DNA from: Asterochloris sp. CNOR1
Taxonomy: Eukaryota; Chlorophyta; Trebouxiophyceae; Trebouxiales; Trebouxiaceae
Assembly: GCA_963969365.1 (NCBI GenBank)
Contig: OZ017762.1
Coordinates: forward strand, 806,001 to 870,000
Length of the DNA: 64,000 bases
Direction: 5' to 3'
Shown in pieces: positions 1 to 64,000 of this stretch; within the stretch, counting starts at the first letter, position 1, and each line of letters starts with the position of its first letter. The notes beneath the pieces are model-generated. The model was not told the DNA's origin. It was given only the letters and a program-made list of their open reading frames with translations, and made no database searches. A program made the translations under genes and the position numbers.

Positions 1-3000
1 GCTTCTAGCGGGCTGCTTGCCCTTTGCACTGATGGTTCATCACCCACAACAAAGCTGATAATGGATGCTGCCTCACCCAGTCATAAGGGCCATCTGGCCC
101 CCACGAGCAGCCACCTGTCGGACTCTAATATCCTGAAAAGCCTGTTTGCTGTGCACCTGAAACTTTTGTCAGTGCCATGGCATGCTGTGCTCTGGTGGAT
201 GAACAAGACAGCAGTACTGCTGGTACGGTCGCTGGAGGCCTGTGGCGCAGCCCCAGACATAGTGGAGAATAGCAAGCGCAAGGTGGGTGCAGCCTGTCCT
301 CACATCTGTGTCTGCACGCCTTCATATCGAACCTTCATTCTCTTAGTAGCAATCAGTAGCCCAGGACAGGAAGAGGCACGGCCGTCAGCACTGCAAAACG
401 GGCAGCACCAGAGTGCTGTCTGGTGCAAAGCGGTGCCTGCTGTTCTCCCAACTGATTTCTACCAACAGAGAAGCCTGTTGGCCAGCTGCAGCCCAGACAT
501 GCCAGGCGGAAGCAACATGCCCTCCAGAACAGCCCAGCTCTGAACCTGGGACAAGCGGCCTGCAGGTCTGGCCGAGGCCGCTGCAGCAGGCTTTGGTTGC
601 TACTCTGCAGGGCGAGTAGCCTCAGCAGCGAAAGTGCCGCAGCGTCACAACAGCCTGCTGCCTGACCTGCAGGGCCAGCACTCTCAGGAGCAATTGCCTG
701 GACCCTGGAACCACATGGGGCCACCCTGCCAAGAGTTGCCAACCACCAGATCGTCCCGTTAGCCTAGTGCTTCTTGCCTTGCAGGGCGAGCAGTCTCAGG
801 AGCAGGTGCTGGGCTGGATGAAGCGGGAGATGGTTGCCAAAGCCAATGAGATCAAAGTGAGCTCCTACTACCGGGCACACTCAGCACTTGCTCACCTGTT
901 GTCTTGAGCACCTGGTATGCACCTCTGTTGTTGAGAACCAAGCAGCATCCATCTCCACCACTGACTGCCCGGAATAAGACAATTGCCTGTGCAGCCAGGA
1001 GAGCGTTCTGCAGCAGACTCTCCAGCATGGTTGCTTGCTGGACCGTGGCTGTACCACAAATCCTACTCTGCAGGCCATGAGCAGCTCTGTCTGTCACATT
1101 GCTGCATGCTCTGCATGCACCAAAACCTGGGATGCTTGACCTGCCCATATCTGATGCAGCAGCCCTTGAAAGGTCTGTCTCTCATCCGCTTGTTTCCTGC
1201 AGAGGCTGACAGACAATTTAGAGACATGCCAGGCAGCGAAGCGCAGGGCGATTGTGAAATTGCAGCGGGTGAGCAAGTCTCTCTTTGCCAGCTATGTTTT
1301 TGTCAGGTCCCTGAGCAGGAAACTGCAGCACTTGTGAACAGATGTGTCAGGTGCATCTGTGCCAGTATTGCACTGCGTCATGAGCTGGCTCAAAGTTCCC
1401 ATATGGCAGAGCCCAGTGCGCACAAGCCAATTAGTCATGAGGTTGCCCACTCCCAGCATATCAGCTTCTGCATGTCCCCTGCTTGCAGCATGACCAGCAT
1501 CTAGCTGTGCGGACAAGCCGGGTTTCCCAGCTCGGCTGTTGATGCAGCTCTGTCCTCTGAGCCAGGCACAGGGCATGCGCGCTTTGCACGCCACACAGAC
1601 ACGGCAACAAAACACTTTGCAGGCGCCTCCTTGGTCAGACTGAACGTACCACTGCAGGAGCAGGACTGTGCCATCTGCAAAGCATATACCAAGGCAGCAA
1701 GCTGCCTTGCAGATGTCGCACACACCAACCCACCCCCCCCCCCCCCCCCCACCCAGGCGCTTCTGATGGAGCAGTGCCCTGCAGGCACGTGAGGACTGTG
1801 CTACTTTCAAGGCTGAGCTGCAGGAGGAGCAGAGCCTGCGCAAGGCAGGGCCTGCCCCCCACAGGCATGCTGGGGATGCTTCGACTCATCCTGCGCCCAG
1901 TCAGCCGCAGGTAGGGCAGCTCAGGCCCGCACTTTTGATGTGGGTGTTGTGGCTTGGCAAGTAGAGAATGCCGCAGCCTTGCTTGGCGAGCAGGGTGAGC
2001 CTTGCCCGAACTGGCATCCCTGCACTGTCAAAGCTCGGGACAGGGCCCTCCATTGTCTACAGCAGTCAGGCAGGTAGGAGTTGCCCCAGCCCACCCTGCG
2101 CCTGGTCAGCCGTAGGTGTGGCACGCTGCGGTCATGCGTTCACCATCGTCTTTGCATTGGGCTCAACTGCGCGCTAACAGATGCCTTTGCTAGTGTCTCG
2201 TTATTTAGGTGTGCAGTGACTTACAAGCCCAGTAGCCTTTTATGTCAGTGGGCAACTTAGGCTGCACCTGATAGCTTGCAGGCCTGTTGCGCACCAGTGC
2301 TCAGTGTCAATGCATTTGCTGTTGACGCTTTACTCCTGCAGACCCAATGTGCCCGTGTGCAGGTGGCTGTCAACCTGACATGGGGCGTGGTGCACACCTC
2401 CAGTATTGCAGCAGGCATGTGCCTGTACTGGGCCCTGCAGCATGAGCTGCCGTCCATGGAGTACAAGTTCTTGCTCGTCTGCACATTCATGGTGAGTTTG
2501 CTTGCCCTCTTGCATGGTTCCAGATGGAGTACATACAAGCTTGTTTGCATGTGCATGTGTACGCTGCTTGCTGGTTGTTGGCTGCTCATGACCTGACCAC
2601 AAGTGCGAGTCGTTTGTTAGTGTATGCTTGTTTGCGACTCTTTAGTCAGCCCAGGCTGTGCTTCTGCGCATGAATGTGCAGCACTGGGGGCAACAGGGCC
2701 TGCTTGTGTACTTGAAATAGCTTGCAAATCTAAGCGTCCCCTGGTGAGATCACATATGTGCTGCTCGCTGGTCGCCAACTGCTAGGAGTATGAGTGGCCA
2801 GGGTGCTTGACATCCACCAGCCTGTGCTTCTGTTCATGCTGAGGCTCGGCCCAGACTTGAACAGTTGGTTGGGCACATGCATCTGGCACCATTCTGTCAT
2901 GGTGAGCTGCTATGTGTGCAGGCCTTCTTCACATGGCTATTTGCCCGGCTGTCAGCGCCAAGGGGCTTCATGGCGCTTCTCCTTTTTGGGCTGGCGTGGG

Positions 3001-3050
3001 CCTTTATGGGGTGGTCGGCCAGTGTGAAACTGCGGACCATGGGGCACTAA
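1..3050 (+). CDS. Unknown coiled-coil protein with C-terminal membrane segments (5' partial)
   Basis: Six exons chain without conflict, all in phase 0: 1-282 (open to the left edge), 785-856, 1203-1268, 1785-1910, 2342-2491 and 2922-3050, ending in TAA. Donors are GTGGGT, GTGAGC, GTGAGC, GTAGGG and GTGAGT; acceptors end in CAG. The first exon has a hydrophobic Trp-rich stretch (LLSVPWHAVLWWMNKTAVLL). Exons 2-4 are charged and heptad-like (GWMKREMVAKANEIK, RLTDNLETCQAAKRRAIVKL), which suggests a coiled coil. The last two exons carry hydrophobic segments (TWGVVHTSSIAAGMCLYWAL, ALLLFGLAWAFMGW) and a short basic tail. The shape suggests a tail-region membrane protein of the endomembrane system, but I do not recognise the family. 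The true start may lie left of the window; ATG at 61 is the first in frame. Confidence 0.6.
1733..1750. repeat. Poly-C tract (18 C) in an intron
   Basis: An uninterrupted run of 18 cytosines lies about 35 bp upstream of the acceptor of the exon at 1785-1910. It may act as an extreme polypyrimidine tract, and the strands could form i-motif or G-quadruplex structures. Confidence 0.9.
1876..2123 (+). repeat. Exon echo of an exon end and its donor
   Basis: The end of the 1785-1910 exon plus its donor (around 1887-1917, CTGCGCCCAGTCAGCCGCAG then GTAGGG) recurs about 205 bp downstream around 2093-2123 as CTGCGCCTGGTCAGCCGTAG then GTGTGG. About 25 of 31 bases match by eye. The downstream copy sits inside the following intron. 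Confidence 0.55.
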
Positions 3051-3457
3051 ACCTGCCAAAGAGTTCTCAGATGTGGTGGTGGAGGCCCACCTGTCAGCCC
3101 AGCAATTTTGATTACATTGCAGCTTGAGAGCATGTTGGAAACCCCCCGCATTGTGTCCTGCCCCTGACTAATCTTCCAGTCCAGTTTAATGCACGAACTT
3201 TGTATGGTGGGCCGTGTTGTGCACGAATTCCAAGGGTGAGAGGACCCTGCTAGGTCACCTTTTTGCCGCGAAGGTTTAATTGTGCAGCAGCTGGCCCACT
3301 CAAGACAGCTTCTGGCCCGCATGTCTCATGTTTGGGCCGCAGATCGCTTCTGCAAGGCCGGGTGTTGCCCATTCTAGCCTCATCCATTGTATCATGTTGA
3401 TGCCAGGTGAGCTTCGGTTGCTGACAGTCGACCAACACGTCCAGACCCCTGTGCCAT

Positions 3458-6206: not shown

Positions 6207-6295
6207 GCTTGCTGGACATCAAAATGACGCCTGTACCAGCCAGTCACTTTCAACATCTGTTTGGCACACTGGAGTTTGTTGTGCTCTCTTTGCAG

Positions 6296-8728: not shown

Positions 8729-8776
8729 CCAAGTCAATTGCCCACCACTGAGTGTACTGTGATATGTCCATGATGT

Positions 8777-8781
8777 TGTAA
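8777..8781 (+). terminator. TGTAA poly(A) signal
   Basis: TGTAA, the standard chlorophyte polyadenylation signal, occurs 49 bp after the stop codon of the pectate-lyase-like gene. Confidence 0.6.
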
Positions 8782-9870: not shown

Positions 9871-12800
9871 TTCCACAATAAGGAGCTGGAAAGGGGCTAT
9901 GGACGCTATCATGCCAAGCATTACATGGGTGAGTTGTGCATAATGGGGCAGAGGCAGATGCCATATGGCAGCCCTTCCGCAGCAGATGTGCATATGTATG
10001 CCGCCTGCTGCTGGCCACACACACTGGGCCTTTGCTGCTGCATCAAGGCACAGCATAGTGCCCTGCCTGCGGCAAGTGGGACCGCTCAGCAAGCCGTCCC
10101 AGCTCAGCTGGCGGGAATGCAGCCTGGACACTTGCACCAGCTGGCCCAGGTGCGCTCACTGCAGGGCGGCACTGCTGGAGCTTGCTCCCGTGCTGTACCT
10201 GCCACTTTGCAGCAGCACCTGCCCATCCCCTGCACCTGGTAACGAGTGTGGCGCTGCAGCATTCAGCGCCCAAGCCGCCTGTCAGGAGGCCGGTGCTGCA
10301 CTGACCCACTTGACAGCTCGCACCTTGCAAGTATCCTGTGATGAGGTGTTCACTCCCTGTTGCAGGGGTGTACTGCTTGTGCAGCACTGCGCGCTGCCTG
10401 GCATGTGCAGCCCTTCTCGGTAACACTCAACAGCCTCCTTACAGACCGCACCCTTGGTCCCTGCTGCAGGGGTGGACTGCTTCTGGAGCATCATGTCTGG
10501 CCTGGCCTGGACAGTGCTCACCATCAAAGTGGGGTTCACCTTCATGTGGCAGTACGGCCTGGTCTGTTTCTTCGTGCTGGCGCTGATCGGGCTGCCAGTG
10601 GCAGCTGCCACCTTTGGCAAGCGGGAGCTCTACCTAGAGAAGTGAGTCTGCTGGGCCGCCTCTTTGCCAAACATGAGCCTGTTGCTGACGGCTGGCTATT
10701 GCCACCAAGGCAAGTGGAAGACGCATGCGGACAACTGAGGGCAAGTCCAGATCGCATCTGGCGTGAGTCTGCTGCCCGGCATGCATGTGCGCGTCTGGTT
10801 GTGCAGCTGCATTTCCCTCTTGGCGAGGGCACTGCTTGACCTGCCCGTGGTGTCTGCGTTTTCTGGGAGAGTGCAAACTCACCTCAAGCGGCTCATTCTC
10901 AGGACATCTGCAGCCTCCAGTGAAGCCCCCTTTCCTGTGCCTGGTCGCTATGCAGATGGGCTGCCTGCAGGTCAGCATAGCTTGCGTAATTTGTTGGGCT
11001 GTGGAGTGTTTCAAACTGCCTGCCAGCGCCTGTGCCTGCGCTGTCTCGGGCAACCCCTGCAGCACTTTCTCGTGGACTCCAAGCACTTGTGCTAGGTGCC
11101 CAACCTGGCCTAGTGGCACAGTGATGCAGGTCTCAATACTGGGACTCTTTAACTGCTATTCTCTGGCTTCTGACCAATGTATACTGCTCCTGCTGCAGGC
11201 GCACTGGAACTGCAAAACGGCCTTATTGCTGCTCTGCCGAGTCGTGCCCTCTTGCAAGGTGTTGGCCATGCTGCAGGCAACAGGCGTCCTGCTGCTGCTG
11301 TGCTTCTTTTTGGGGATACCTCAGGCAATGTTGGTTGCACAACAATCTGCATTCTTCCTGAAAACGTGCTTCGTCCTCAACCAAGACTGCGTTTTGTAAT
11401 GTGCTGCAGTCACACAGCATCCTGATGTTGACCTTGAAGGACGTGTCTGCTGCCGATCTGAGTAACTGCGTCCCAGACCAAGGCTATATCCCCCCCTCCA
11501 GTTGTGCCTGATGCTGCCTGAAAGACGGCTTAGCGGAGCGGGCCTGGCTGGTCTTGCTGCAGGCGCACAGGCATCCTGTTGCCGTCCAAATAGCCTTCAG
11601 TGGCGTGCCTGGTGCCGCTGAGAAGGACCGCTCTGCACATCAAGCCTGTCTTCCCCTGCTGCAGGCGAACAGGCCTGCTGATGCTGTCGCGCCTGGCGTC
11701 CACAGCAGTGACAGTGCGCCTGCACAAGCAGATCTTCTTCGAGAGCGAGGCCACCTCAATGGCCACCTTCCTCTGGAAGGTGCACTTCATGCTTGCTTGG
11801 CTGCTAGGGGAGGTAGCTGGCAGCTGCTGCGTGAACTGCCTCTAATCTGTGGATCTGGTGGTGTGCAATGGCAGGCTGTGTGGGGCAATGTCAATAGGCA
11901 GGGCTGCACAAGCACATCCTTTGAGAGCAAGGCAATATCCTTGAACACTCGCTTTTGAAGGTATGCCTCCTGTGTCGGCATGAGCATGCTGTATCAGGCT
12001 GTTAGGGTTGCAAATTGACTGCACAGGCTGACCCTCCAAGAGCAGAGGCCCGTCAATGGCCAAATGCTCTTTCAGCTGTGAGCCACCGGGTTTTGCTGGC
12101 GAGAAGGTGAGGGGAGTGAACAATGCTTGCACTGGTGGTTGCCAACAGTGGAGACAACCTGTTGCCACTGATGCGGCATAAGGAACTAACCCCCCGGGAC
12201 ATGGAGTGCAGACACACCTTTGGGTGGCTGATGGGTCTCCCTCCTGGCCCTGTTGCCCAACAAAGTCAGCACCTACCTCCTTGTCTCCACCTGCAGGTCT
12301 GAGTGGGCCCCAAGCATTGAATGTGGTAGCAGCGCCTGTCACATCATGTGCAGCCATGTTTTCTGCATCTGAGCATCAGCATGTACTGGGTCCCACTCCT
12401 GCCTCCAGGTGACACCATGCCTCAGGGTGAGCTGGGAGGCCAGAGCCCCCTTGGTTGCGAATACAGGTCCCCAACCCAACCATTCCTGCAGCTGCCAGCA
12501 GGCTCCTCAAGCTAATGCCTTTGCTCCTCAGCAACACCCACTTTCCCCGCGACTGTCCATTAGGGCCAGCCTGCCTCCGTCTGCAGGTCTCTATGGCCAT
12601 GTACTTCAAGGTGACCTTGTGGTGAATAATACCTTTCCAGACTAATACCTGGTGCTGCCCTGCAGGTGTCTGTGGGGCTTACAAAGGCGCTGCCCATGTG
12701 CAGCAGTCACATCTGCTGACTACCAATCCCAGAGCACCAATCTGCCTCTGCCTGCAGGTCGTTGTGGGCTCCAAGATGTTGCTCCTCGTGAACAACACCT

Positions 12801-21100: not shown

Positions 21101-24100
21101 CCAAAGGTGCAGTTGGCAGCTTCTGCATGAGCTGCAGGGCACATGCACACATGCATTGGCATGGTCAAGGGACTGCTGTGGCTCCTTGCCAGCCTTGTAT
21201 GCACACTGGGTCACGCTGACCTTGAGCCACACAATAGATGAACAAACATGAGCAGCCCGTCGGGGATCATGCTGCAGGCAGCTCAGCGCCTTGAGACTCT
21301 GCCAGTCTGCATGGCACCCGCAAGCAGCACGCAAGCACCCAGACCAATATGCACACTGTCAATGAGTTGGGTTGCATATTTGACTGACCTCGCCCATGTA
21401 CTGGCTGCTGGACGTCAGCAGCTGCATCATTGACCGCGCCCACTGCCCAATGGCCACCTCCAGAGTCACAGGCAAGTCTGCGCCGTCCTCATTGCAGGCA
21501 CCAAAAGCCGACCCAAGCGTGTTGGCAGCTGACAGCTGCCTCTCAAAGGCGGCCACTTGCCCTGGCAGGGCATTTGCCTCTGCCTGCAGCACAGGAATCC
21601 GCATTACTTACGCCCAACAAGGCGCTGCAGACGCAACGCCCACTCCCCACTGAGTGAACCCCTGCCCTTGCACGGCATTGGCCTCTGCCTGGGCAAGGGT
21701 GATGTACAGGCTGTGCTGTGGCTTGGATGCGCAAACCTGTCCTGGCCTCACATGGCTCCTGCCAATACAGGTGCAGCAGGCAGCCACGTTGTGTGCGTGC
21801 TGTACTGCCAGCCAGCTGTTCTAGTGCCCTGGCTCCAGCACCTCTTGCACACAATCAACTGAGCAAAGGCTGCAGCACTGTGCAATGCTGCAGTAGATGC
21901 AATGGTGAAGCAGGCAGCGCCCACATGCAGGCAGGCGGCCCCTCACCCGGTCAGCTGTCGGGGAGTGCAGATTCTGCAGCGCAGCCTGGCACTTGATCTC
22001 CAGGTCCTTGGCCTGCTGCTTCCAGTAGGCCAGCTCCTTCTCCTTGTGCTGCAGGCAGGTTCATACAGAAGTCAGTGGCTGTCCTTTTGCAGTCATCCTG
22101 CACAATCACACTCCAGCTGGCATGACCCTGACGGGACCGCTCTCTTCAGAGAGGCCGTACGTCTAGGACTTGGAACGATCCGCAAAACACAGACATGGAC
22201 AACCTGCTCAGAGATCACTGAGCAACTGCAGCGGTTTCCTATGTTGAACTTCTTGTGCTGCAGCTCAGGGAGACAGGTGCCGCACAGGACGCAGGGTCTG
22301 CAGCAGCACATGGCGCAATGCACAGATACTGCTGCGTCCCAATCTTGCTTGCCCAGTGTGAGGTGCTGCTTGTACTGGGTCCTGCCAAGAATCAGGCACC
22401 TCACCATGATCTCTGCCTGCGCATGCGCCAGCTGCTGCCTGAGCACGTCCTCCTCGGTGTAGTACTTGGCACGCATTGTGGCAGGGTCGCGCTTGGTGGA
22501 GGGCTGCCGTCCCTTGCACCGCTGCAGGCATGCACACAGTATATTTCCAACTGCAGTATGCAGGGTGACTGCCATAGGAATGTAGGATCAAGTCTGAAGC
22601 ATCACACTTGAAAAATTCAAGCAGATAATTGCTTGGTGCAGATTGTCGCTAAGGGACGGAGACTGTCTCTGAGGAGGGGCATACACAGACTTGGCGGCCT
22701 GCAGATAATTTGCTACGGTCACGTCTCTTGTCAGAGGGGCTGGCGCTTCTTGCATTGCTGCACAGCAAACTTTTGCTTCAAGTCAGTCCTTCCAATGGGA
22801 GCCTCTTGCACCGCATCACAAATTGTGTGACTGTTACACAAATGGCGACTGTTTTACAAGCGAGAATGACGAGGCAGGCACAACCCAAATCTCACCAGAA
22901 TGTGCTGCTCCAGCAGGGGGCACAGGTGCAACAGGGCAGCCCCAGCAGGCTTCATCCAGGGTACCACTTTCACAGAGCTCTGTGCAGTCCTGTTGCACGC
23001 AGCCAGAAAGACAATTACTCCAAAGAGTACTTCCCCAGCTCACCACAATGTGCTGCTCCAGCAAGGCCTTCAGGTGCAGCAGGGCAGCCTGAGGGTTGCC
23101 AGCACCCCCCTGCCCGTCATGGGGCTCAGGCGCTTTCTCCACGCTGCTGCGACCCGTCAACAGGTCAACCTGCTCCTGTGCTAGGGCCACAGCCTCCTCG
23201 CTGGCCTGCACAGCGTCCCTGCAAGTGAAAAGCATGCTTGGCTCAGCCTGTGATCTGGAGCCACCGGCTTCAGCCACTCAGCATTCCCTTGTCCCCGTCT
23301 TGCACGTGCAGGAAGTTTTGGCAATCAGCATGGGCTCAAGCTGTGGGTTGGGGATCATTGCTGCGCTCCATCAGCAGCTTCATCTGCATGTATGGCATGG
23401 CCACCCACTTCTTGCAGCCTGCACAGCATCCTGCAGGCGCAAGATGCTCACTCAGCCCAGACTAAGCAGGTCCTCCGGCGCCACAACCTGGCCTGCGCAT
23501 GCACCCCTGCAGGCGCAGGGTGCTCACTCAACCGAGATGCAGCAGGTCCACCAGCTCCTGTGCCAAGGCCGCAGTGTCCCTGCTGGCCTGCATGGCATCT
23601 TTGCAAGACAGCGTCCCCTCTCACAGGCATGGGCCCAAACTCATGGTGTTAGAGCCTGGCTGGTCCACCCGCTCCAGCGACCCAGTGTTCCCTTATTTGT
23701 CGTGCAGGTGCAGCAACCTCAGTCAGCACGGCCTCAAGCTGCACCATGGATTGTTGCCATACAGCCTGCCTGATGTCTGACATGACGCGCCACCCATTTG
23801 TGTTGACGCCAGGCTTGCTGAACATACCGGAGGCCACAGCCGCTGTCTTGCTAACGAAACTCTGCTGCATGGTCTCGCCTCCCAGCAGCAGTGCTTCCCA
23901 ACCCAGCTTCAGACGCAATAGCTGACCTCACTTAGAGCCTGTGGCCACTGCCGTGCTGGCCAGCCTCTGCTGCGGCTGCATTGCCACCTCTCGCAGCGAA
24001 GCTCCCTTACCCAGCCCAATACTCGCGAACACCACTCACTTGGAGGCCATGGGAGCCGCCTTATTGGCCAGCCTCTGCTGCAGCTGCGTCGCCACTTCGC

Positions 24101-40200: not shown

Positions 40201-43200
40201 GGTAGCCCCTGAGCGACCCAGCATGCTCAGGCCAGCATCACACTGTCAGCACTGGAGGGCTGTGTGTGCCCACCTGTATGTCGGCTGCGCCTGGCCAGGC
40301 AAGCCTCCGCCACCTCCAGAATGGCTGCACAACTCATCCTGCAGCCAGCAGTCTGGGCCTCAGGAGGAAGTCATTGGTGCACGCCCTCTGCCACACAGGG
40401 CATGCAGGGAGCGTGCATGGTGTTCCGTCCAGCAGGGCGGGGCCACCACCTGAGATACAAACAGCTGGGGCATCCAATGGGCCGAAGAACGCTGCACACC
40501 CCACACAGTGGGACCTCACCGGCGCGCCGTGGCTGCATTGGGCCGGTAGTCTGAGACGTAGCAGCGCGCATACATGCCCCACAGCAGGCGCAGCTGCTGG
40601 TGCATGTTGCCAAAGCGCCAGGACCCGTCGGGGCGCAGGCAGGCCTGGCGGGCCGACTCGTCCCACTGCTCTGGCAGCTGGTACTGAGCTGCATCGCTGG
40701 TGCTAGCCGGTAGAGCTGTGGCAGCCCACTCCGAGACGTCGTGGGTCCTGCTCCTGCAGCAGTAAGGATGTCAGGAGTAGAAGTATATGCCATTGGCGCC
40801 GACACTGAGCAGCCGTTCTGAGGGTTGCTGGCAGACCCAGTGACTGGTCCTGCGCAAGACAGAGCCAGATATTTCTGCATTGAGGAAGTCTCACTGCTTT
40901 GGCAATAATGAGCTGCATTGCTGCTTGCTATCTGCATTGCTGAACTGGCCTTCTCTTGAGGTGCCATGCATCTTGCATCTGCAGCAGACATTGAGAGGAG
41001 AGCTCATGCAACAGCGTATGCAGCAGGCCTGTTTGGGGTGCCATAGCTGCCTGCAAGTCTGTTGTGGCCTCTTGACATGCCGCAGGTGGCAACAGCAGAC
41101 AATGCTGATTGTCTCATTGTGTCTAGAGCAGCCAGTGCAGGGAACTGCAGCTACCATGCAGGGGCTCTGGTGCTGCCCTCACCACTGTACTTGCCTGCGT
41201 TTTCATGGGATGTCATATCTCTCTCAGCCCCGCAGCACCGTCACAGAAGCCTATGACACCGGCTCTCAACAACAGTAACTCATTGCTGCACCACAGAGGT
41301 ATGATAAGAGATGACAGATCAGGTGGTGTCGCATGTAGACAGACCCTGAATGAGCTGAAGTCTGGCGCAGCAGCCAGCCCAACACCCAGCATGCATGCAA
41401 GGCCTGCCTACAGTGATCCAAGCTGGATCTCTGGAGCTCGCACAGGACCTAGTGTGTGAAGCACCTGATTTGGTCAAAGTCTCAAGCACATGCAGGTTGG
41501 ACGGAAAACTCACTGCTGGACTTTTGTGCAGTCCCTGAGGGCGCTGATCTGGCGCATAAGCCCCATTGCATCTGAGATGAAGGCCGCCCTCAGTTGCGCT
41601 GCGTCCCCTGTGCCCGCCTCTGTCAAGCTCCTCTCATAGTTGTCCAGCGAAGAATGCAGCAGCAGCGCCAGCTGCTTCTCCAGGGCCTGCGCCTCTGCAG
41701 CAGAACACAGCGGGGGCGTGGCAGAAGCAGTGACCGCATCAGACAGGCTGCAGTGGCTGCAAAGCTCTTTGAATGCCTGCAGCTGCGCAGGCAAACATTA
41801 GGTGATTTCAGTGACGCATTGGGAAGACCACTTGTGCTGACACAAGTGGCCTGCAGTCCAGCAAGAAGGCCTTGCTCAAGCCCAGGCCAGCAGAGGTGCA
41901 GCATGCCCTCAGTGTGCTGTTGTGCATCGTTGCCCAGGGCGGGCAACAAGCAGTGAGGGCAGATCAGGAAAAGCCCCAGGCTAGCGGCGGCCCCCAATTG
42001 CTGCCAGTGCACTGGCAGTGAGAGCATATCAGGAAAAGTCCTCAGTCCAGCAGCGGCCCCCAATTGCTGTCTATGCACGAGTGCTCTGCTCTCAGAATGT
42101 AAGTGGAGCACGCGGTTAGCTGTTGTTTGTCAGCGCGATCATCGGCCATCTGAGACAGATTTGCACCTGCACAGAGCCCACACCAGTAGGCAAAATTGGG
42201 CCGCCCAGCATCTGCAAGGCCTTTGCTGCCATAGTCAGCGGCAGGCTGAGGCAAGCTGTGGCAGAGAGATCTAATCTCAGCAGTGACAAGCATGTAGCCC
42301 GTGACTTGTAAGCAACTCTTTGCTGTCACAGTCTGAGGCAAGCTGCACTGAGCCATTCCCAGCAGAGCAAGCAGGCAGCGCACCGTCTGTGAGCTGCTTC
42401 TTGCCGGCGTAGTCATTCGCAACCTGGCGCAGGGCATCCCTCAGCGCATTCTCCTGCTCGTGCACCTGCTGCTGGTGCTTCTCCTGTTTGACCTGTAGGG
42501 CAGTCCAGCTGGTGTTGATAGCAAAGCCCTGCGCAGTATTGCTGAAAGAGGCCGACAGAGGCGTAAGGGCTGCTGCAGTTCCTGAGTCACCGTACGTGCG
42601 TTCCAGCAACCCGGCTTGAAGAGCCAAGAGGCATGCAGCCTGCTGTAATGCATAGTGTCAGTCACATACATATGCAGCAGTGTTCTGCAGAGGTGTGAGC
42701 TGGCACCAGAGCTGAGCAGCTGGAGTGGGTTGGAGGCCAGCCCTGGCTGAGCCAGTTGGTCTCGAGCGGTATCTCACCTGCCTATTGAGTCTTTCCACGT
42801 CTGCTTTGAGACGATCAATTTTGTCCTGCAGCAGCATGACGCTGTCAGGACACCTTTGTAGCCCCTGGACCAACCTGCCAGACTAAGCAGCCGCCACAAG
42901 CCATTCATGTCTGAAGCATGCTTTCGAGAGCCACCGCAACAGGACAACACCCAAAGAGCAGGGCTGTCATGCATGGTGACCAAGCATCTATTGTATCATA
43001 GGGCAACTAGCGCCATGTCGCCTGTACAGTCGCCTCAAGATCACCAACAGGGCATCTCCTGCATCACATGCCACACTCAGCATGCTGCCTGTGAAGCGCC
43101 TCACCTCTGCTTGTCGGGTGAGCTTCCAGTGCTGGTCTGCTGTGGCCTGAGCAGCAGCCTTGGCCTGGCTGAGCTGCTTCTCCAAGCGGTCCCGCTCCAT

Positions 43201-48700: not shown

Positions 48701-51700
48701 GTGCCGGCCAGCTATGCTGCAAAATAACGGAACCATCACGTGAACTAAGCTCTGCAGGTGCTTGACGACCAGAACCTGTGGTTGCGGCAATGGATTACAC
48801 TGCTCACAGCCATTGCGCAGGACCCTGTCTCAAAGAACATGCTCATCGTGAGCTCCAGTCTCTAGTAGGCCAGTCCGGCTTGCATTTTTTGCACATATGT
48901 GCCCATTCCTCAAGCATTTGACTGCTGTTAATGTAGGTTGATGCCCTGAATGAGCCGGATGTTTTTGGGTACAGTGCTTCTTTGCTCTGCTGAGACGGTC
49001 AGCTACACAAGTATGGCTTTCATTGCTTTTGTGGCATTGCTTTTGCAGACTGCGATGGGAAGCAGAGGGGAGCAAACCTGGCTACGCCGACTTAGCCCTC
49101 GCACTATTTGATGCAGCTGCAAGCGTAGTGCCAGGCGCACTGTTCATGGTAGAGGGGACAGGCCAGATTGTGCCAGGCGAGTGCACCCCTATGATGAGGC
49201 TGAGCCTATTTGCGTATGCAAGCCCTTGGTGGACCGCTGCTGTGCCTCTGCAGATGGCATGTCATACAATTGGGGCGATGGGCTGGCTGCCCAGCCTCAA
49301 GTTGTCATCCAGTTCCCCGGCATCAGTGATGCCAGCATTTTCTTTGAGCAAGTGGTGACCAGGCCCTACGCCAATCGAGTCATTGTTGGTAAGGCTGCAG
49401 CTGCGCTTTCAAATTTTGTCAAGGCAGGCAATTGATGAAAGGGCAAGCAGTCATCTCTGCTAAGAGTCACACTAGGCGGCTTCATCCTTTGTGCAGGTCC
49501 CCATGTATATGGGCCTGCCATCTCTGGCGCCACGGGTAGTTATTCAGGTTCAGCACTCTTCCAGCGTCTGAGCCAGTCCTTTGGCTATCTGAACAAGCAG
49601 GGCTACTGTGCTCAGTCCACTGGGCAGTGCCACCAGTTCCCTGTGGTTCTGGGGGAGTTTGGCAGCAGGCTGGAGGACCCACGTGACGTCTCACAGGCAA
49701 GCAATGCCTGCAGCTCAATCTGGCTTGCAGAAGTGCCTGGCGCTTGATTGATAATGAATCCTGCAGACTGCATCAGGCAGCCAGCGGTGTGCCCAGGCAG
49801 CAGAAGCACCTCTGGCACTGCTGCCAGGCTGTGCTTTAGTGCTCGGACAGCCACCTGCCAATGTTTGCTGCAAATTGCTCCCACCTGGAGCTCATATGCG
49901 GAGACATGCAGCTGCGTCACATGAGCTGTGCTTCTGCAGTTCAACGACATGGTCTCCTGGATGAATGTCGGCGATGATCTACACAACCCTGTTGCCGGGT
50001 GGTTCTGGTGAGTTCATAGCAGTCTGTTGGCGTTGGTGCTCTGCTGGGTCCTCATCAGCAGCAATGACACTGCTGCTGCGCCCCTGCAGGTGGTGCTGGA
50101 ATGCCAACTCAGGTGGGCAGGCTGTGCCCTTCGGCAACACTGGAATGTATGTCCCTTGTGGGCAAAGCAATTCTTTGGTGGACGCCATCTACATGAGCAA
50201 TATGTACTGCACTGCTGCAGGGGACACACAGGGCCTTGTGGCTGCTGACTGGTCCACCATTCTCTGGAATAAGATCGACTACCTGAAGCAGCAGGGTCTG
50301 CAGCCATGGTACTCTGTAGGATCCTCTAGGTGTGCAGGGCAGGTCACTGCACCCAAGTCATAGTCCACAAGGCAGGGCCAGTGCCAATGACGACAGGGTC
50401 TGCAAGGCAACAAACTTCCAGTCTACGACGCACCTTTGGTCTGCTTGTGCACTGCCGCTGAGTAGACCTTCTGCCCTGCAGCCCTGCCGCCTCAGGGGGC
50501 TCTTCATCTGGAGGTGGATCCTCATCTGGAGGTGGATCCTGTGCTGACATCCAGCCTCCAGGCGGCTACACTTGTGCACAGCAGGTGAGGTCTGCCCGCG
50601 GCAGATGCCTTGGCTCCGCGGGAGCTGCCTGTAAGCCCCACATTATGAGTGCTTGATCCCTTCTCCTCTTGCAGCGGTGTCTGTGCCACACATAGGCTGC
50701 AATATGGCTTGCATCCTCACCAAAGGCTGCTGTCCCAGTGCACTCTGTGCATGGACTTATTTGCTCCAGCTGGGCTCAGTGGCATGGCTGACCAGGGCAG
50801 TGTGTGCTCTTCAGCTGCCCAGTCCCCTGAGCTGTGCTGTGTGTTCTGGGTGCCATGGGCAAATGTGGCTGACCCTTCATGTGCGTTGACTGCGCCCGGA
50901 CCTGCAATTGGTGTTGATCCATCAGGAGCTTCCTGTGCTCATAAAATCAGCAACTATGGCTTGCTCAGTTCCCAGCTGTGGATGGCCAGTAGAATTGCAA
51001 GTCCTTTGCTGCAACAATGCAACTGCTCTAATCAACAAAAGCAGATTAGCAGGTTGGTCCTGCAGAGCGGTGCCCAGCTGTCAGGCAGTGGCTGTTGGGT
51101 TATGATGCTGCTGTGCAGCTCTCCTGCGCGTCACAATGCATGTCATTTGCGGCCTGCAACCCTTGGGACCTCCTATGCTTTGAATGACATGACCAGCAGC
51201 TCAATGACATGCACACTGATACACACTGTGCTGCGTGATCAGAGTGCATGGGGCAAATGTGGCGAGCCATTCATGAGGGGCTACTGCGCACAAGCCTGCG
51301 GGCGCTGCACCTCAGGCTGCTCTGATGTGCCACCACCGGGGAGGTTTTTTTGTGCTCAGCAGGTCAGCAGACATTGCGAGCCTGCAGCATTGTACATGTG
51401 GTGCATCATCAACTAATTGCAGTGCTCTGCACTTCATCCAGCAGCCTGGCTCTGCAGAGCCACTGCCCTGCTGCCAAGCAGTGGCTATGGCCAGGTGCTG
51501 CTGTGCAGCTCTCCTGCTCATCCCAATGCATGCCGTGTGGGACCTGCACCCCTCAAGACGCCCTATGCCTTGTTTGCTGTGCTCTTGATCATCAGTGACA
51601 TGACCAGCAGCACAATGACATACGCACTGACAGACAATGTGCTATGTGCTCAGAGTGCATGGGGCAAGTGTGGTGAGCCATTCATGAGCGGCTACTGCGC

Positions 51701-53044
51701 ACAAACCTGTGGGCGCTGCAATGCGGCGTCAAGAATGCCTGCCGCCACTTGTTCCGATGTTGCCCCACCAGGCGGATTCACCTGCGCTCAGCAGGTTCGC
51801 CTGTTGCATTGAGCAATGGTTGGCAGGCGTATTAAAATTCATCTCACATCAGCACAATGAATGCTGACTCGGGTGCTGGCTGATGGTTTGGTATCTCAAG
51901 ATGACATCTGGGCAGGGAGACTCCTGCAAGCTGCCTGCCTACTACAAGCTGCAGACAGCCAATGTGGGTCCTCCTCATGTGTTGACCAGGTTCCCAATGT
52001 AGATGGTGGCTTTCTTTGATGAGCTTTTGCTTGAAGCGCTATAATGGCTGCTCTGTTGCTATTTTGCTCAAACTAGTCCCCCTGGGTCCCTTCAGATGCT
52101 GCAAGGTGGCCTGCCACTGAGTGTGCTAATGGCCCGCCCACCTCCTGTCCTGTCTGTGCACGTGCTGCCTATCATTTCTGCGCTGTCCGAGAGCATTGCT
52201 TGTTTTGATGTCTCCTTACTCCCTCCCTTGTGCTGCGCAGCAAGCTTTTGGGAAATGCACCGAGGGGTAAGTTGTTGAGCATCCACTGGTCTCTGCCTCC
52301 TATTATCACTGCTGCCTGCAACGTGCGGACCCATCCCGAGCTTGATTTGTGCAGGTGGATGACAAGCGGTAACTATTGCCAGGTATGGCTGCACTCCCTG
52401 GCGCGCACTCAGCATGTGCATCTTGTACCTACAGCTGTGGAAGGACACGATTCGCAGTCAGAGTAGCAAAAGTCCAGGGTTGTCTGTTGCCTGCAGGCTA
52501 CTTGTGGCGCATGCAGCTCCAGCTGCAGCGACACTCCTCCTGACAGCTCGTACACTTGTGCCCAGCAAGCTCAATTTGGGAAGTGCAGTGAACCGTGAGT
52601 GGCACAAGTGACTTCGGCACTAAATCTGTGCTGGTGCTTCTCTGAGCTGACTGACTGACTGCATGAGCTTCCAGTACCTGTACAGAGAGATTCGTCTGAG
52701 TTGCAGGTGGATGACAAGTGGAGGGTTTTGCCGGACAACATGTGGAACCTGCGGCTGCAGTGACATTCCTCCCAGCAATCAGTCAGCCCTTTGGCTTCTG
52801 CTGCGCGCTGCTTGCTTAGTGAGAGTGCATGTTACAAGATCCGCATTTGCTCTGCTGCCTGCAGGTTCACATGCCCCCAGCAGGCTTCTTTTGGGCAGTG
52901 CAACCAGGTGAAGAAACTGCGCATTGCATGGCTGAGTGCATGATTGCCTTTCAGTGCTGAAAATTTTGGAATGCTGACATGGTGATTGGGTGCCTGCAGG
53001 AATTTATGCAAGGCTACTGCAAGCAGTCCTGTGGGCGTTGCTGA
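45730..53044 (+). CDS. Secreted GH5 cellulase with five C-terminal ShK-like domains
   Basis: ATG 45730 opens a signal peptide (RCAGLLVLLAWGHGEAQ). An N-glycan-rich domain of unknown function follows (exons about 46376-46503 and 46975-47368; NLS, NST, NVT, NTT sites). The GH5 catalytic domain starts in exon 47619-47846 (TLHGLNWFGFDDG) and continues through 47967-48088 (GLWAGSD, KALGFNAIRLPFSFK), 48202-48273, 48350-48490, 48590-48649 (GFYVIADNQFNLD), 48758-48847, 48937-48968 (DALNEPDVFG, proton-donor Glu codon 48952-48954), 49049-49176, 49254-49388, 49497-49696 (VVLGEFGS, nucleophile Glu codon 49655-49657), 49940-50005 and 50090-50329. A GGGS-type linker (50482-50584) leads to five Cys-rich ShK-like repeats, ending TGA 53042. 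It would cut beta-1,4-glucan outside the cell, with the repeats as protein-protein or wall-binding modules. Confidence 0.9.
50504..50539 (+). repeat. 18-bp coding repeat (GGGS linker)
   Basis: Two identical 18-bp units TCATCTGGAGGTGGATCC encode SSGGGS twice, making a flexible Gly/Ser linker between the cellulase domain and the ShK-like repeats. Confidence 0.9.
51060..51800 (+). repeat. About 400-bp intron-plus-exon tandem duplication
   Basis: A block containing intron sequence (GCTGCTGTGCAGCTCTCCTG at 51107 and again at 51497) and the ShK-domain exon (51243-51362 and 51654-51794) is present twice, offset 390-411 bp. Both exons are open, share splice phases and encode SAWGKCGEPFM.GYCAQ.CGRC, so the duplicate added a working domain. 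Confidence 0.9.
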
Positions 53045-53199
53045 CTGCTCCATCTTTTGAGCCGCCATCTACACATATGAGTTCTGTGGTTCTGCAACCT
53101 TTCACCTGCATCCCCTTCCCCCTCTGAGTTGATGGATGGCAACTTTGACAGCTTGCCCTTTGAAGTTGCTTCTGCATCCTGAACAGCCGCTTGTGCCGT

Positions 53200-53242
53200 T
53201 AAGCAACAGATCTGCTAAGCAACAGATCTGCTAAGCAACAGA
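53200..53242. repeat. 16-bp tandem repeat, 2.7 copies
   Basis: Perfect units TAAGCAACAGATCTGC at 53200, 53216 and (partial) 53232, between the cellulase stop and the PsbP-domain gene. Confidence 0.95.
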
Positions 53243-53380
53243 ATATGCTCCGGCCCAGAGGTCTGCTGATTGCTTCTTGCCTGGTGTGGACGGTCTTGAA
53301 GAGGGAGCCTGACTGCTCTTTCAAACGCCTATCATGTTCATCTCTCCTTCTGTCACATCCTGCGTTCAGTCGGCAACAAC

Positions 53381-55350
53381 ATGGTGCTGCAGCAACAACT
53401 AATACGCCACTCCTGTGGCCATGAGGTGCCTGTCTTTGCGCCCCGCTTGCTTAGGTGTAGATTGCATGCCCAAAGACAGCACACAGCCTGCAGTCAGCAC
53501 AGGCAGCAGGGCATGCAGCAGCAGGATGAGAGCTGCTGTCGACGCCAGCTATTGCAGGGAGCTGCTGCTGCTTTGGTGCTGCCATGGCTTGCAGATGGTG
53601 CCTTGGCTGCATCACTGCCACAAGAAGGTGAGGTGGAAGCTGTGCAGCCTGCAGCACAGCTTGACACCGTCAAGATCAGGTCCATGACTGTCCCAGCCAT
53701 TGCGAAATATAGCACGCTGCGGCTCAGTTTGCTGTGCATCACTAGCCCTGCCACTGTCACTCACCATGCATGCTCCTGCAGGCTTCAGGTTCCACCAGGA
53801 CAAGCTGGATGGCTACTCGTTTATCTATCCTGACAACTGGATTCCTGTCACAACATCAGGCAATGATGTCTTTTTCAGGAATCCCAGGCAGGTCCACACC
53901 TCTCGTCAGCTGCATACTGCAAGGCCTGTCATCAAGCTGCATCTTGGTCCAGTGGGTCTCCCCTCTCTGCATCACTGGCTGCGAAGTGTTGATTTGCTGT
54001 GCAGGAATGTGAATGAGAATGTGTTTGTCAACATCTCATCTCCCTCCTCTTCCAGATATACTGCAGTCAGCGACATCGGCAGCCCAGACAAGGTGCGCTG
54101 CGCAGCGCAGATGGCTCTCCTCACACTGCAGCGTAGTGAGAGCTGTGCCCTCAGTGCAGTGGCAGGCTGCATCGCTGCCCGCTTTGCTGTTGGCTCACAT
54201 GAGGGTGCAGCGCTGTGGAAGCTGTGACACCACTGCCATGGCAAGCTGCACTGCTGCCCAGCCTGCGGCTGACTTGCATGACGGTGCATCATGTGGTGTT
54301 TGAGGGCCCACCAGTGTGGTGGCAAGCTGCACTGCTGCCCACCCTGCTGCTTGCCCTGCGTGGCTCTCTGCAGGCAGTGCAGCTGTCTGTGCTTGTACCC
54401 ATGACCTGTTGCCGCCTGCTTGCGTCTCATGCCGCGCCAGCCAGCCGGGGATAGCAGGCTGCAGGTGGCAACAGCAATGCCTGCCCAACCTGCTCCTGTG
54501 CTGGAGCAGCTCCGCTCCGTGCTGGTCAGGCGGGCTACCCTGTGGACCCCACTCCATGTGGCCGCAGGTAGCAGACCGGCTCAAGCGGCAGTACCTCTCT
54601 GAGATGATGTCGACCAGGCTGGGCGTGAAGCGGGCAGCGGCTGTCAAGTCTGCTGCCAAGAGGCAGGGCTCAGATGGGAAGGAGTACTATGACATTCAGG
54701 TAGGCCTGCTGGCCAAGCACACTGGTGGCAATGGTTGGGGTCACTGGGTGGACGCCGAGCCTGGATACAGGGTAGGCTGCCGGCACACATAGCATGCATG
54801 TGCAGAGTGCTATGATCCGCAGGTCAGGCTGCTGGCAGAGCACAGCGCGGCAGAGCACAGAGCTGTCGGGCATGGGGTCTGCAGCCTCTACTTGACCATA
54901 GCTGCACACAGCGTGCATGGTTGTGCAGAGTGAAGGCGTACAGACCCAGCCTGACACTGGGTGATGCGCACAGCATGTGAACATGGTCCTGGCGCTCACT
55001 TGTGCTGGCACAATCAATCTCGGTCACCAGCAGGGGAGCAGCGACAGCATGGTGTGGCATGCTGCACCATGCCATGCAACCGCTGCAACAGAGGCCTCTA
55101 CCTGCATGCCTCCTGTGTGCAGATGGAGGTGCAGTCCTTTGCATCGCGCAACCAGCTGGCCGTCACCCAGACAGAGATCGACAAAGCCTTTGAGCTGGAG
55201 TGGGACCGCCGCCTCATCACAGTTCTGGGCGCTGCCAACAACAGGCTGTACGAGTTCAGGCTTCAGACCGCTAACAGTGCTTATGAGACTAACTCAGAGG
55301 GCCTGCTCCGAATTGCTGAATCGTTCAAGTGCAGAACAGTGGATGTCTGA
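53381..55350 (+). CDS. Thylakoid-lumen PsbP-domain protein (PPD type)
   Basis: Exons 53381-53627, 53782-53887, 54005-54092, 54568-54699 and 55123-55350 (TGA) agree in phase, about 267 aa. The N-terminus is a bipartite lumenal targeting sequence: a transit-like region, then a twin-arginine Tat signal (CCRRQLLQGAAAALVLPWLA) with an ADGALA cleavage region. The mature part has PsbP-fold signatures: GFRFHQDKLDGYSFIYPDNW, VFFRN, NVFVNISSPSSSRYTAVSDI, GSPD, VADRLKRQYLSEMM, GKEYYDIQ and a C-terminal strand-helix ending LLRIAESFKC. PPD proteins assist photosystem assembly or cyclic electron flow; which PPD this is cannot be decided. The second intron appears to use a GC donor (53888). A decayed copy of the last exon lies 400 bp beyond the stop. 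Confidence 0.9.
54100..54360 (+). repeat. Intronic minisatellite-like copies
   Basis: Degenerate units containing GGCAAGCTGCACTGCTGCCC recur at about 54160 (weaker), 54240 and 54320 inside the intron between PsbP-domain exons 3 and 4, spaced about 70-90 bp. Confidence 0.6.
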
Positions 55351-57529
55351 TGGCCGTCATCTGACCCAACCCTTACTCCCTGGCCCCCATCTATTTGGAC
55401 AGTGCGCACACTCAATGTCAGCAGTAACACCAACACCTTGTGTCATTGACATCGTGTTCAGGAGCTGCCATCACCTAGGCAGGGCACAGAGATGTCAGTC
55501 ACATTTTCAGGGTGGTGCCTCCCCCAGGTGGTGCCTCCCCCTTGGATGCATGGCTGAACCAATCAAGCACCCCTCACTGGGCAACACTCCAGTCTGGTTT
55601 TTGCCCTGACCTGGATCAGCTTGACATTGCACACAAAGCACATACGGCAGCACCAGGGTGTGGGCCATAGGTTGTGGTATGCTGCACAATGTACTGCTCT
55701 GCAGAGGCAGAGCAGGTCCGTGCTAACCCAAAGCTCTCCATCATGCAGAGGGAGGCGCAGTCTTTTGCATTGAGCCCCTAGCTGGCCTTCATCACAGAGG
55801 TTGGGCTGCATGATGACCAGCAACATCAATTCAGCCATGTGTCCTGTCTGACCCAAACAATGGGGCCTCTTGTCATCTGGGATTTGGTTACACAATTGTA
55901 GACACATCCCAAGGGCATTTTGAATCGAAAGACAACTTTGCATGAAATTGTTTAAATGTCTACGCTATGAGGGAGGCTGAATGTCAAGTTGGCCTACTTC
56001 TGCCTGGCTGGGGAGCTGACATGCTGCTGTTGCTGAACCAAGAGAAGCCGCCCTCTGGCCAGGTGCACAGCTCGGGGCATACTCAAGACTCTGTCTACAA
56101 TGCAGACCATTGGACCATGAAAAGCTAGGGCAAGTCAAGGGATTAGCTTCTGAGGTCGCTGCTGGGGTTGAGCCTGTCGCATGCATTCAAGGCCGTCAGA
56201 CCAGGAATGCATGCCAGGCATGCTGGCTGTCCAAGATTTGCTCAAAGGTCCTAGAGCCCCCTCTGCCTTGTGCTGAGCTGCCAGGGTCCCTGGTGACGGT
56301 TGCAGACCACTGCATTTGAGACTGGAAACTTGCTCTCTCAATGGCCAGATAGGTAGTCAGCAGTAGATGTTGCGCGCACAGGGTGGGTGAAGAGTTGTTG
56401 TTGTGATCCCAGCTTCCAAACCCCCCGCTGGGGTCAGCAGAACCCATGGCCGTACCAAGCACACTGTGCCTCAATGTAGAGAGGCTGCAGTTGTCTACCT
56501 GAAGCGAGAGCCCATCAGGGGCAAACAGGCAAGGGACAGAGCAACACAAAGCAGGACGCCAGCCCAGGAGCTGCCAGACCACTCCTGCACAGCAGCAAGT
56601 GGCACGTTCAGCCATCCAGGGTGCATGCCAAAGTAAGCGGGTGTACACTAAACAAGCATGCTCATTCATGGCTGCACAGCTGCTGGAGCATTTGTGGGGT
56701 GTACACCTCAGCTCCCGGGAGCTGAAGAGCCAAAGTGCCACGTCAAGCCTGTTCCTGACACCCTGTTTGCATGCTCCTTTGGTGCCATGAAGAGGATGCA
56801 CTTTGAGGTGTCCCAGGGTGGCACTTCTCGACCCTGCACAGTGCAAAGGGGACCAGACCCCAGGAGCCCAGCCATGCTCACCGCCGTCAGCCTGCAGGCA
56901 GCAGAAGGGCTGCAGAGCTCAATGCAGACGCAGCAGGAGGAGGCGCCTCCAAAGTTGAGCAACATGCCAGGAACAGTGGCATTGTATTGACTGCCAGGCT
57001 GCCCAGCAACACTGCGCTTCGACCACACTTGTGGCTTCATGGAAGCAGGAGGCTGAAGGACATACACGACGCAACCCAGCTGTCCCCAGGCCAGGAGTGA
57101 GCCGACATCTTGACCACTACCCTGAATGAATGGTTGCTGTTGGCCAGCAAGGAAGGCCAAGATACTCAGGTGGAATTGGCCACTCACCTGGAGGAAGGCG
57201 GCTGCGTTGCTCTGGGGCTCCCTTTGCACGGGGGACAGCAGGAAGGGTCAGTCCTGCACACACTTGGTGCAGCAGCACAGCGGACAGTGTCACCTCAACC
57301 ACAGTATGGCACAGAGCTAAAGGCGCCTCAATCAGAGACACAGCACCACTGCAAGATGGTGCACCAGAGGCAGGCCTGCGCCGAGGGTGAAGGGAGCCGG
57401 GCAGCATCCAGCCAGACAATGGCGGATCAACACTAATCAAACTGAGCATAGCAGGCTGAGGAGCGGTGAAGACATGAGGGCCACCGCAGACAGTGCCCTT
57501 ACCCTGCGTCCCGCACACCTACAGCCCGC
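55351..57529. other. Between convergent genes; no confident gene
   Basis: Contains the PsbP-gene 3' flank, an echo of its last exon near 55749, and several minus-strand open stretches (for example SLQVDNCSLSTLRHSVLGTA near 56500 and LQVSGQFHLSILAFLAGQQQ near 57150). These could be further 3' exons of the right-hand gene if the stop at 57530 is not used. None could be tied in by phase. Confidence 0.4.
55749..55800 (+). repeat. Orphan exon echo of the PsbP-gene last exon
   Basis: AGGGAGGCGCAGTCTTTTGC at 55749 matches the last exon start ATGGAGGTGCAGTCCTTTGC (55123), about 33 of 44 bases, including the upstream CAG acceptor. The preceding GTGGTATGCTGCACAATG also resembles the intron end GTGGCATGCTGCACCATG. 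Lies outside the gene, 626 bp from the source. Confidence 0.75.
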
Positions 57530-63500: not shown

Positions 63501-64000
63501 GGAGCAAAGGGGAGAAATGGAGCCGTCGCCTCCAACGAGGAAGCAGAGTGAGAGCAGGGGCTGAGTACACTTGCCACACTGTGAGCTGTTACTGGCAACA
63601 GTGACCCAGGGCAGCTGCATCTGTCAAGTGCATGTGCACCACCAGCTCTGCTGCACAGCTCTGCTCAGCTCCCCTGCCCAGTGTGGACAGACAACCAAAG
63701 CAGCTGGCCCCACCTGGAACCTTTGCGCTGTGAGAGGCGTGCTGCACAGCTTTGCACATCTCTCCTGCCCAGGCTTCCGCCAGCTCAGCCCTCTCTGCAG
63801 CCACCCAGAGCTGCAGCAGGCGCAGCATTAGGTCCAGGGCAGCGCTGCTGCGCATGTCAGCTGCAGGTTGGGTCTGCTGGTCGCCAGTCACATCCACAAA
63901 GCCTGTGGTGGCTGCTGTGGGGTCAGTCAGCGGGGCGCTGGCTATGCGAATGATCCCGTGCTGCAGCAGCAGGGCTTTCTCTGCCCAGCTGGCTTGCACC
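57530..64000 (-). CDS. Unknown helical-repeat protein with Ser-rich segment (5' partial)
   Basis: Runs in from the right edge. Minus-strand exons with clean splice sites include 64000-63730 (LQHGIIRIASAPLTDPTAAT, ALDLMLRLLQLWVAAERAEL), 63438-63290, 62757-62520, 62120-61555 (Ala/Gln-rich helices), 61292-61078 (Ser-rich: SGSWTGSASSYSSSSSSSST), 60750-60515, 60127-59940 (SEELEEGEIKAG then FWGLALALFETLSGQAEAAR, TPR-like), 59580-59395, 59115-58990, 58740-58560, 58510-58350, 57905-57790 and a last exon to TGA 57530. Helical Ala/Leu repeats suggest a scaffold, and the EEGEI and Ser tracts resemble nuclear RNA-processing proteins. That is weak inference; no family is recognised. Junction phases were not all verified. 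Confidence 0.5.
58118..58265. repeat. Intronic echo pair, 111-bp spacing
   Basis: AGCAGGACAGCCTGCACAGC at 58118 recurs as AGCAGGACAGCCTGCAGGGC at about 58229. About 27 of 33 bases match, with similar flanks (TGACATCTTCTCAGTC against TGACAGCTTTTCAGGC). Confidence 0.75.

What the first reader, a model, noticed from the sequence alone, without database searches (positions are those of the whole stretch)
1..64000. Introns throughout the window carry decayed copies of adjacent exons (exon echoes)
In at least nine genes the neighbouring intron holds one to three degenerate copies of an exon edge, usually with the splice-site bases, offset mostly by 75-200 bp. Examples: 10355/10459, 22899/23047, 23161/23543, 23955/24063, 29766/29892/30040, 42224/42321/42402, 55123/55749. 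Copies are same-strand, frame-broken and more diverged than the exon. This is not a transposon or introner pattern, because each family is private to its own exon. Tandem duplication across an exon containing AGGT is an established model of intron creation. A window in which this seems ongoing and pervasive would be unusual, and could explain both the intron density and the near-uniform CTGCAG acceptors.
Basis: partly seen in the sequence, partly recalled or inferred. Interest (0 to 1): 0.85.

Follow-up and report, generated by a model that had tools for sequence, protein, structure and literature searches.

The report
Decayed tandem duplications echoing exon edges
The introns of this green alga really do hold worn copies of nearby exon ends, here and at other places sampled in the genome, and these are best explained as leftovers of mostly old, short tandem duplications that lengthened introns rather than as introns being created now.

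Summary
Same-strand repeats in the window are 50-75 times commoner at 75-150 bp offsets than at 2-10 kb; inverted ones are rare. Eighteen of 19 other 10-kb loci also have more direct than inverted local pairs. Over 334 kb, 93 of 608 modelled introns have an echo at one end.

The interpretation mostly fails. Donor and acceptor junctions, which AGGT intron creation would make alike, are alike in 1 of 595 introns (0.25 expected). Young copies are scarce: 5 of 84 intron-intron pairs are >=86% identical, against 108 of 338 in steady-state simulations. CTGCAG acceptors are not significantly commoner in echo introns (p=0.06).

Simulated random tandem duplication that ended roughly 0.2 substitutions per site ago, with exons conserved and introns decaying, reproduces echo spacing and one-sided decay; a slow-down with some later births fits better than a full stop. 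No splice-site-directed mechanism is needed.

The parts
656..697 (+). echo of acceptor edge of exon 785-856 (real copy 768-809, lag 112, 81%)
2067..2123 (+). echo of donor edge of exon 1785-1910 (real copy 1862-1918, lag 205, 72%)
   Evidence: genome search found only itself
11520..11586 (+). echo of acceptor edge of exon 11665-11779 (lag 102, 72%)
21663..21691 (-). echo of acceptor edge of exon 21389-21583 (lag 105, 90%)
29862..29933 (-). echo of donor edge of exon 30027-30200 (lag 148, 79%); a weaker further copy near 29766
38215..38246 (-). echo of acceptor edge of exon 37907-38124 (lag 118, 81%)
38947..39011 (-). copy of donor edge of exon 39339-39469 (lag 377, 74%), beyond the adjacent modelled intron; also matches 39127 and 39052
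41950..42078 (.). two-copy tandem duplication (66-bp period, 84% matches)
   Evidence: the same pair appears
50832..51709 (+). decayed tandem duplication with a unit of about 400 bp, up to three copies (lags 390-411 and 805)
54096..54362 (+). decayed tandem duplication inside a modelled intron (lag 79-81, about 70%)
55673..55798 (+). copy of the acceptor edge of exon 55123-55350, the last exon of the PsbP-domain model (lag 626, 68% gapped), 3' of the modelled gene end

Best explanation
Short segments (roughly 40-200 bp, some about 400 bp) of this alga's genome were duplicated in tandem more or less at random. A duplication across a splice site was tolerated when splicing kept using the copy that left the protein unchanged; the other copy, carrying the exon edge and its splice site, became intron sequence. 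Exons are conserved while introns decay, so an exon-intron pair loses similarity about half as fast as an intron-intron pair, and the duplicated intron tail fades first. What remains is an exon edge with a lone decayed echo. Most of the duplications are old, from about 0.2 to 0.4 neutral substitutions per site ago, with a lower rate since. They lengthened introns and rarely, if ever, created them. Shown: homology, locality, spread over sampled loci, one-sided decay, scarcity of young pairs. Inferred: the mutational event, tolerance by splicing, and the dating, which rests on simulations with hand-set parameters.
For: Intron-intron pairs are mostly tandem (span >=0.8 of the lag in about 61%). 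Intron tails of echo pairs keep residual homology 9-40 nt from the site (60 acceptors p=6e-7, 56 donors p=4e-11; 28% and 39% above the null 95th percentile). Mismatches by codon position 0.20/0.20/0.26 (acceptors) and 0.19/0.18/0.25 (donors), as for a free copy against a conserved exon. Splice dinucleotides survive about as often as local identity predicts. Exon-intron pairs exceed rotated-annotation expectation (159 against 122 +- 10 at score 16; 89 against 58 +- 7 at score 20), as slower decay predicts. Three pulse simulations at indel rate 0.12 give median lags of 130-157 (real 130), exon identity 0.73-0.76 at 10-20 nt (real 0.76), intron identity 0.33-0.36 at 20-30 nt (real 0.33). Intron-intron pairs >=86% identical: 5 of 84 real, 108 of 338 in three steady-state runs, p=1.8e-7.
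Against: Duplication rate, unit length, indel rate and timing were set by hand, so matching counts of echo-bearing edges (76, 113, 103 against 97 of 1216) is no independent test; runs at indel rate 0.2 gave 54 and 48. The exon-intron to intron-intron ratio (real 134/84 = 1.6) scatters widely in pulse runs: 0.91-2.1 for an end 0.15 units ago and 1.5-3.0 for 0.2, and age trades off against tolerance of edge duplications. A full stop underpredicts young pairs: 11 of 84 real intron-intron pairs are >=82% identical against 2 of 73 and 1 of 51 in two pulse runs. A 'decline' run gave ratio 0.77. Real exon-intron pairs are less often full tandem (about 24%) than in pulse runs (31-49%), intron-intron pairs more often (61% against 27-45%). 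Real coverage peaks at the splice site and tapers into the exon, while simulated coverage stays flat, and identity in the last 5 intron bases is higher than simulated (0.69 against 0.46-0.60 in pulse runs). The 39 real exon-exon pairs were excluded from the simulation by rule. Gene models lack RNA evidence. I lowered confidence from 0.75 to 0.70 on rechecking these points.
Confidence: 0.7

Rival explanations
1. Duplication continues at a steady rate today; young copies look scarce because the assembly collapsed them or the decay model is wrong.
For: Some high-identity tandem pairs exist, e.g. L015 7224-7459 and L016 5978-6064; 11 of 84 intron-intron pairs are >=82% identical, more than a full stop predicts.
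Against: With a constant birth rate the number of pairs should not rise with age, whatever the deletion rate (inference), yet 5 of 84 are >=86% identical against 108 of 338 simulated. Contigs are chromosome-sized, so collapse of 50-200 bp units seems unlikely (inference).
Confidence: 0.18
2. Ongoing creation of introns by tandem duplication of AGGT-containing exon segments (Rogers model).
For: One modelled intron, L022:8412-8500, has donor and acceptor junctions alike at 38 of 60 positions across AG|GT. A gapped donor-acceptor comparison reaches 17 in 10 of 595 introns against 0.6 expected.
Against: Junction-aligned matches 1 of 595, 0.25 expected; lag equals intron length in 2 of 94 acceptor and 2 of 86 donor edge pairs. 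Of the six best gapped cases printed, only one reaches 30 of 60 matches when the junctions are aligned without gaps.
Confidence: 0.03
3. Low complexity, codon bias and the CTGCAG motif mimic copies.
For: 61-71% of modelled acceptors are CTGCAG.
Against: Other-gene introns give 0.0-0.5 expected hits and reverse complements 0-2 where 9, 7, 36 and 37 are seen; far-lag control 6 pairs against 267.
Confidence: 0.01
4. Echoes are functional: decoy splice sites, mutually exclusive exon remnants, or competing RNA elements kept by selection.
For: About half the echoes keep the splice dinucleotide; tandem genomic duplication is named in a paper on competing RNA structures of mutually exclusive exons (PMC6071210, listing only).
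Against: Retention is about what local identity predicts, and mismatches are only mildly biased to third codon positions.
Confidence: 0.04
5. A splice-site-directed copying process copies exon edges with about 10 bp of intron.
For: Exon-intron pairs fade within 10-15 bp of the splice site on the intron side and are seldom full tandem; coverage peaks at the splice site more sharply than simulated.
Against: Neutral decay in simulation gives nearly the same identity profile; intron tails retain significant homology.
Confidence: 0.04

Closest known systems
Pseudogenic exons in mammals (Morais and Harrison 2009, PMC2718932; abstract, outline and part 1 of the results section read)
   Same: Decaying exon copies beside their parent gene.
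   Different: There 0.4-1.0% of genes, mostly at least half the parent exon, 12-22% on the opposite strand; here exon-edge pieces of about 45 bp, in 35 of 59 intron-bearing models, 22 inverted against 359 direct local pairs. Detection criteria differ.
Tandem genomic duplication intron gain (Rogers model; PMC3443670 and PMC4974935, passages read)
   Same: Tandem duplication across or near splice sites; the potato case duplicated an intron-exon segment.
   Different: Here the copy is absorbed into existing intron sequence; AGGT junction geometry in 1 of 595 introns.
Small tandem duplications (PMC8355091, passages read; it cites Messer and Arndt 2007, title seen only)
   Same: Possible mutational source.
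   Different: Break repair in mouse stem cells; no link was tested here.
Ubiquitous internal gene duplication (Gao and Lynch 2009; seen only as a citation)
   Same: Internal duplication of gene segments (recalled).
   Different: Paper not read.
Introners (PMC9860276, listing only)
   Same: Intron-associated repeats.
   Different: Introners insert copies into many genes; these echoes resemble their own exon only, as far as tested.

Membership tests
Decayed tandem (close direct) duplication | Same-strand excess confined to short lags | tested here: met
Decayed tandem (close direct) duplication | Copies adjacent (span about equal to lag) | tested here: inconclusive
   About 61% of intron-intron pairs, about 24% of exon-intron pairs; decay of the intron part explains much but not all of the difference
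Pseudogenic exon | Copy of an exon part near its parent, evolving without evident coding constraint | tested here: met
   own-gene specificity, codon-position mismatches
Pseudogenic exon | Frameshift or stop in the copy | not tested
   Not counted
AGGT tandem-duplication intron creation | Donor junction resembles acceptor junction, lag equals intron length | tested here: not met
   1 of 595; 2 of 94 and 2 of 86 edge pairs
AGGT tandem-duplication intron creation | Intron absent from orthologues | not testable with these tools
   The genome has no relatives in the search tool
Introner | Similar sequence in introns of many genes | tested here: not met
   Edges match other genes' introns at chance level; 3 of 3 echoes have no genome match outside their locus, at a sensitivity that missed two known local copies
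Repeat-induced point mutation | Strong excess of transitions | tested here: not met
   ti/tv 0.93 and 1.06

The most novel reading that the evidence does not exclude
A lineage-wide burst of 40-200 bp tandem duplication, now much slowed, built a sizeable share of intron length in this alga, with exon edges serving as clocks because one copy of each pair is held by selection. This would offer a mutational answer to why green algal introns are long.
Probability: 0.3. Interest if true: 0.6.

Novelty: new member of a known kind. Interest (0 to 1): 0.42.

Why it matters
Introns here keep a readable record of local duplication, anchored by conserved exon edges. That could make testable what sets the long introns of green algae: 'Comparative genomics of Chlamydomonas' (PMC8226300, passages read) reports conspicuously long introns in the Chlamydomonas-Volvox group, says the advantage of such lengths is unknown, and calls the driver of intron length likely ancient. 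Local exon copies with splice sites can also mislead gene prediction, and may have misled mine in echo-rich stretches.

Tried and rejected
Rejected or not supported: low complexity or CTGCAG bias, introners, RIP-like hypermutation, AGGT intron creation as the general mechanism, pure steady-state duplication, splice-directed copying.

A dust filter penalised long segments; searches use a length-normalised one, and one search replaces the counts. Tail homology rests on the older filter. A first gene model merged genes because stop codons were mis-scored; one search corrected this, but some neighbours remain fused. E. coli K-12 gave 18 direct pairs at lags 50-500 in 49 kb, 15 of them in aceF and yacH; as a bacterial genome it is a weak control. 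Locus L004 has as many inverted as direct local pairs, 9 and 9. No other eukaryote genome was at hand, so I cannot say how unusual this density is. The species was not identified; a PsbP domain, genome size and GC suggest a trebouxiophyte near Asterochloris (inference).
Full report
WHAT WAS CHECKED. The window is C17:806001-870000 of a 56.4-Mb, 21-contig genome, 55-62% GC in 4-kb steps. I compared it with itself on every diagonal, +1 match and -1 mismatch. Direct repeats of score >=16 run at 6.9 per million position pairs at lags of 75-150 bp against 0.09-0.13 at 2-10 kb, have largely faded by 1000 bp, and have almost no inverted counterpart. Nineteen further 10-kb loci from C1-C18 have 6-29 direct and 0-9 inverted pairs at lags 50-500; 18 of 19 have more direct than inverted, and L004 has 9 and 9. 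Two 40-kb stretches on C2 and C6 are thinner than the window (5.8 and 7.3 direct pairs per 10 kb against 14.1). So the phenomenon is real and widespread, with uneven density; 334 kb of 56 Mb were sampled.

GENE MODELS. I wrote a gene finder trained on its own predictions over those 334 kb. It converged on donor CAG|GTGAGC and acceptor CTGCAG|G, 61 genes, about 11 exons per gene, median intron 282 and exon 130; 30% exon, 61% intron, 9% intergenic. Pfam finds GT49, pectate-lyase-like, GNAT, Methyltransf_16, GH5 and PsbP domains in five of the seven window sequences scanned. Small exons and gene ends are unsure, and some neighbours are fused.

For each exon edge the best ungapped match to its own intron was compared with equal lengths of introns from other genes and with the reverse complement. 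Window: 9 of 115 acceptors and 7 of 115 donors reach 16, against 0.0 and 0.1 expected, and 0 and 0 on the reverse strand. Other loci: 36 and 37 of 458 each, against 0.5 each, and 2 and 0 on the reverse strand. Nine of the 11 cited pairs score 18-42 against slid maxima of 9-13; 42321/42402 is marginal and 42224/42402 fails. Three echoes searched across the genome matched nothing outside their own locus, but the search missed two known local copies, so only near copies are excluded.

ANATOMY. Acceptor echoes lie upstream and donor echoes downstream (56 of each with the copy in intron), partly forced by geometry. Exon-intron pairs exceed rotated-annotation expectation about 1.3- to 1.5-fold. Identity runs 30-40 bp into the exon but fades within 10-15 bp into the intron. 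Mismatches are mildly enriched at third codon positions, ti/tv is about 1, and splice dinucleotides survive in 28 of 47 and 24 of 50 echoes: the pattern of a free copy beside a conserved exon. Intron-intron pairs are mostly tandem; exon-intron pairs mostly show only the exon part. Intron tails of echo pairs keep significant residual homology.

IS IT INTRON CREATION? In the AGGT model the donor and acceptor junctions are copies of each other at a lag equal to intron length. Junction-aligned matches (30 of 60 or better) occur in 1 of 595 introns (0.25 expected); lag equals intron length within 6 bp in 2 of 94 and 2 of 86 edge pairs. A looser gapped comparison gives 10 of 595 against 0.6 expected, so at most a few per cent of introns could be of this kind. 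The best candidate is L022:8412-8500.

IS IT ONGOING? Under a constant birth rate the number of pairs should not rise with age (inference). Real intron-intron pairs in ten identity bins from 0.50 to 1.01 number 3, 14, 22, 14, 6, 14, 6, 3, 1, 1. At >=0.86 that is 5 of 84, against 108 of 338 in three steady-state simulations. But at >=0.82 it is 11 of 84, against 2 of 73 and 1 of 51 in two pulse runs, so births slowed rather than stopped. The exon-intron to intron-intron ratio is 1.6; steady-state runs give 0.49-0.98, pulse runs 0.91-2.1 (end 0.15 units ago) and 1.5-3.0 (0.2 units), older ends 3.0-4.8, a later end (0.1) 0.84 and a gradual decline 0.77. One unit of simulated time is about 1.2 base changes per unconstrained site (from the script's settings).

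DOES NEUTRAL DECAY SUFFICE? Artificial genes with the real layout were evolved with random tandem duplication, substitution, indels and protected exons. Three pulse runs at indel rate 0.12 match the real lags and the identity profile on both sides of the splice site. The numbers of echo-bearing edges (76, 113, 103 against 97 of 1216) also agree, but the duplication rate was chosen by me, so that is no test; runs at indel rate 0.2 gave 54 and 48. What does not fit: full-tandem fractions (exon-intron 24% real against 31-49%, intron-intron 61% against 27-45%), the sharper real coverage peak at splice sites, higher identity in the last five intron bases (0.69 against 0.46-0.60), and 39 exon-exon pairs that the rules left out.

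INTRON LENGTH AND ACCEPTORS. Introns with an echo are longer (median 464 against 272), partly because longer introns offer more room. Covered fraction by intron length is 0.145, 0.120, 0.096, 0.065, 0.078, 0.120, 0.191 and 0.091 from the shortest to the longest class: it rises from 300 to 1000 bp but is not monotonic. About 10.7% of the sequence lies in detectable local pairs. CTGCAG acceptors: 66 of 93 against 312 of 515, p=0.06. Intron density is ordinary for green algae (reported averages 7.0-9).

VERDICT. Real, widespread, and well explained by known processes: decayed short tandem duplications with exon edges as surviving landmarks. The density looks high beside mammalian pseudogenic exons (0.4-1.0% of genes, PMC2718932, against 35 of 59 models), but criteria differ and no related alga could be compared.

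Noticed in passing
L022:8412-8500: Candidate intron created by tandem duplication: donor and acceptor junctions alike at 38 of 60 positions across AG|GT, intron 89 bp.
   Followed up: no
L009:7485-7564: An exon echo whose substitutions over about 50 bp are all transitions at third codon positions, plus a one-base deletion (alignment printed, codons read by eye); the protein looks like ThiC (recalled, not searched). It may have been coding until recently.
   Followed up: no
50832-51709: Tandem duplication with a unit of about 400 bp, up to three copies, much larger than the usual unit.
   Followed up: no
199-15171: One model fuses a GT49 glycosyltransferase with a pectate-lyase-like gene; a further gene may follow.
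   Followed up: partly
45745-55350: One model joins a GH5 cellulase-like gene and a PsbP-domain gene (scanned as two parts).
   Followed up: partly
L015:7158-7500: One of few young-looking arrays: lag 82-85, about 86-92% identical, starting near an exon donor edge.
   Followed up: no
L004: The one sampled locus with as many inverted as direct local pairs (9 and 9).
   Followed up: no
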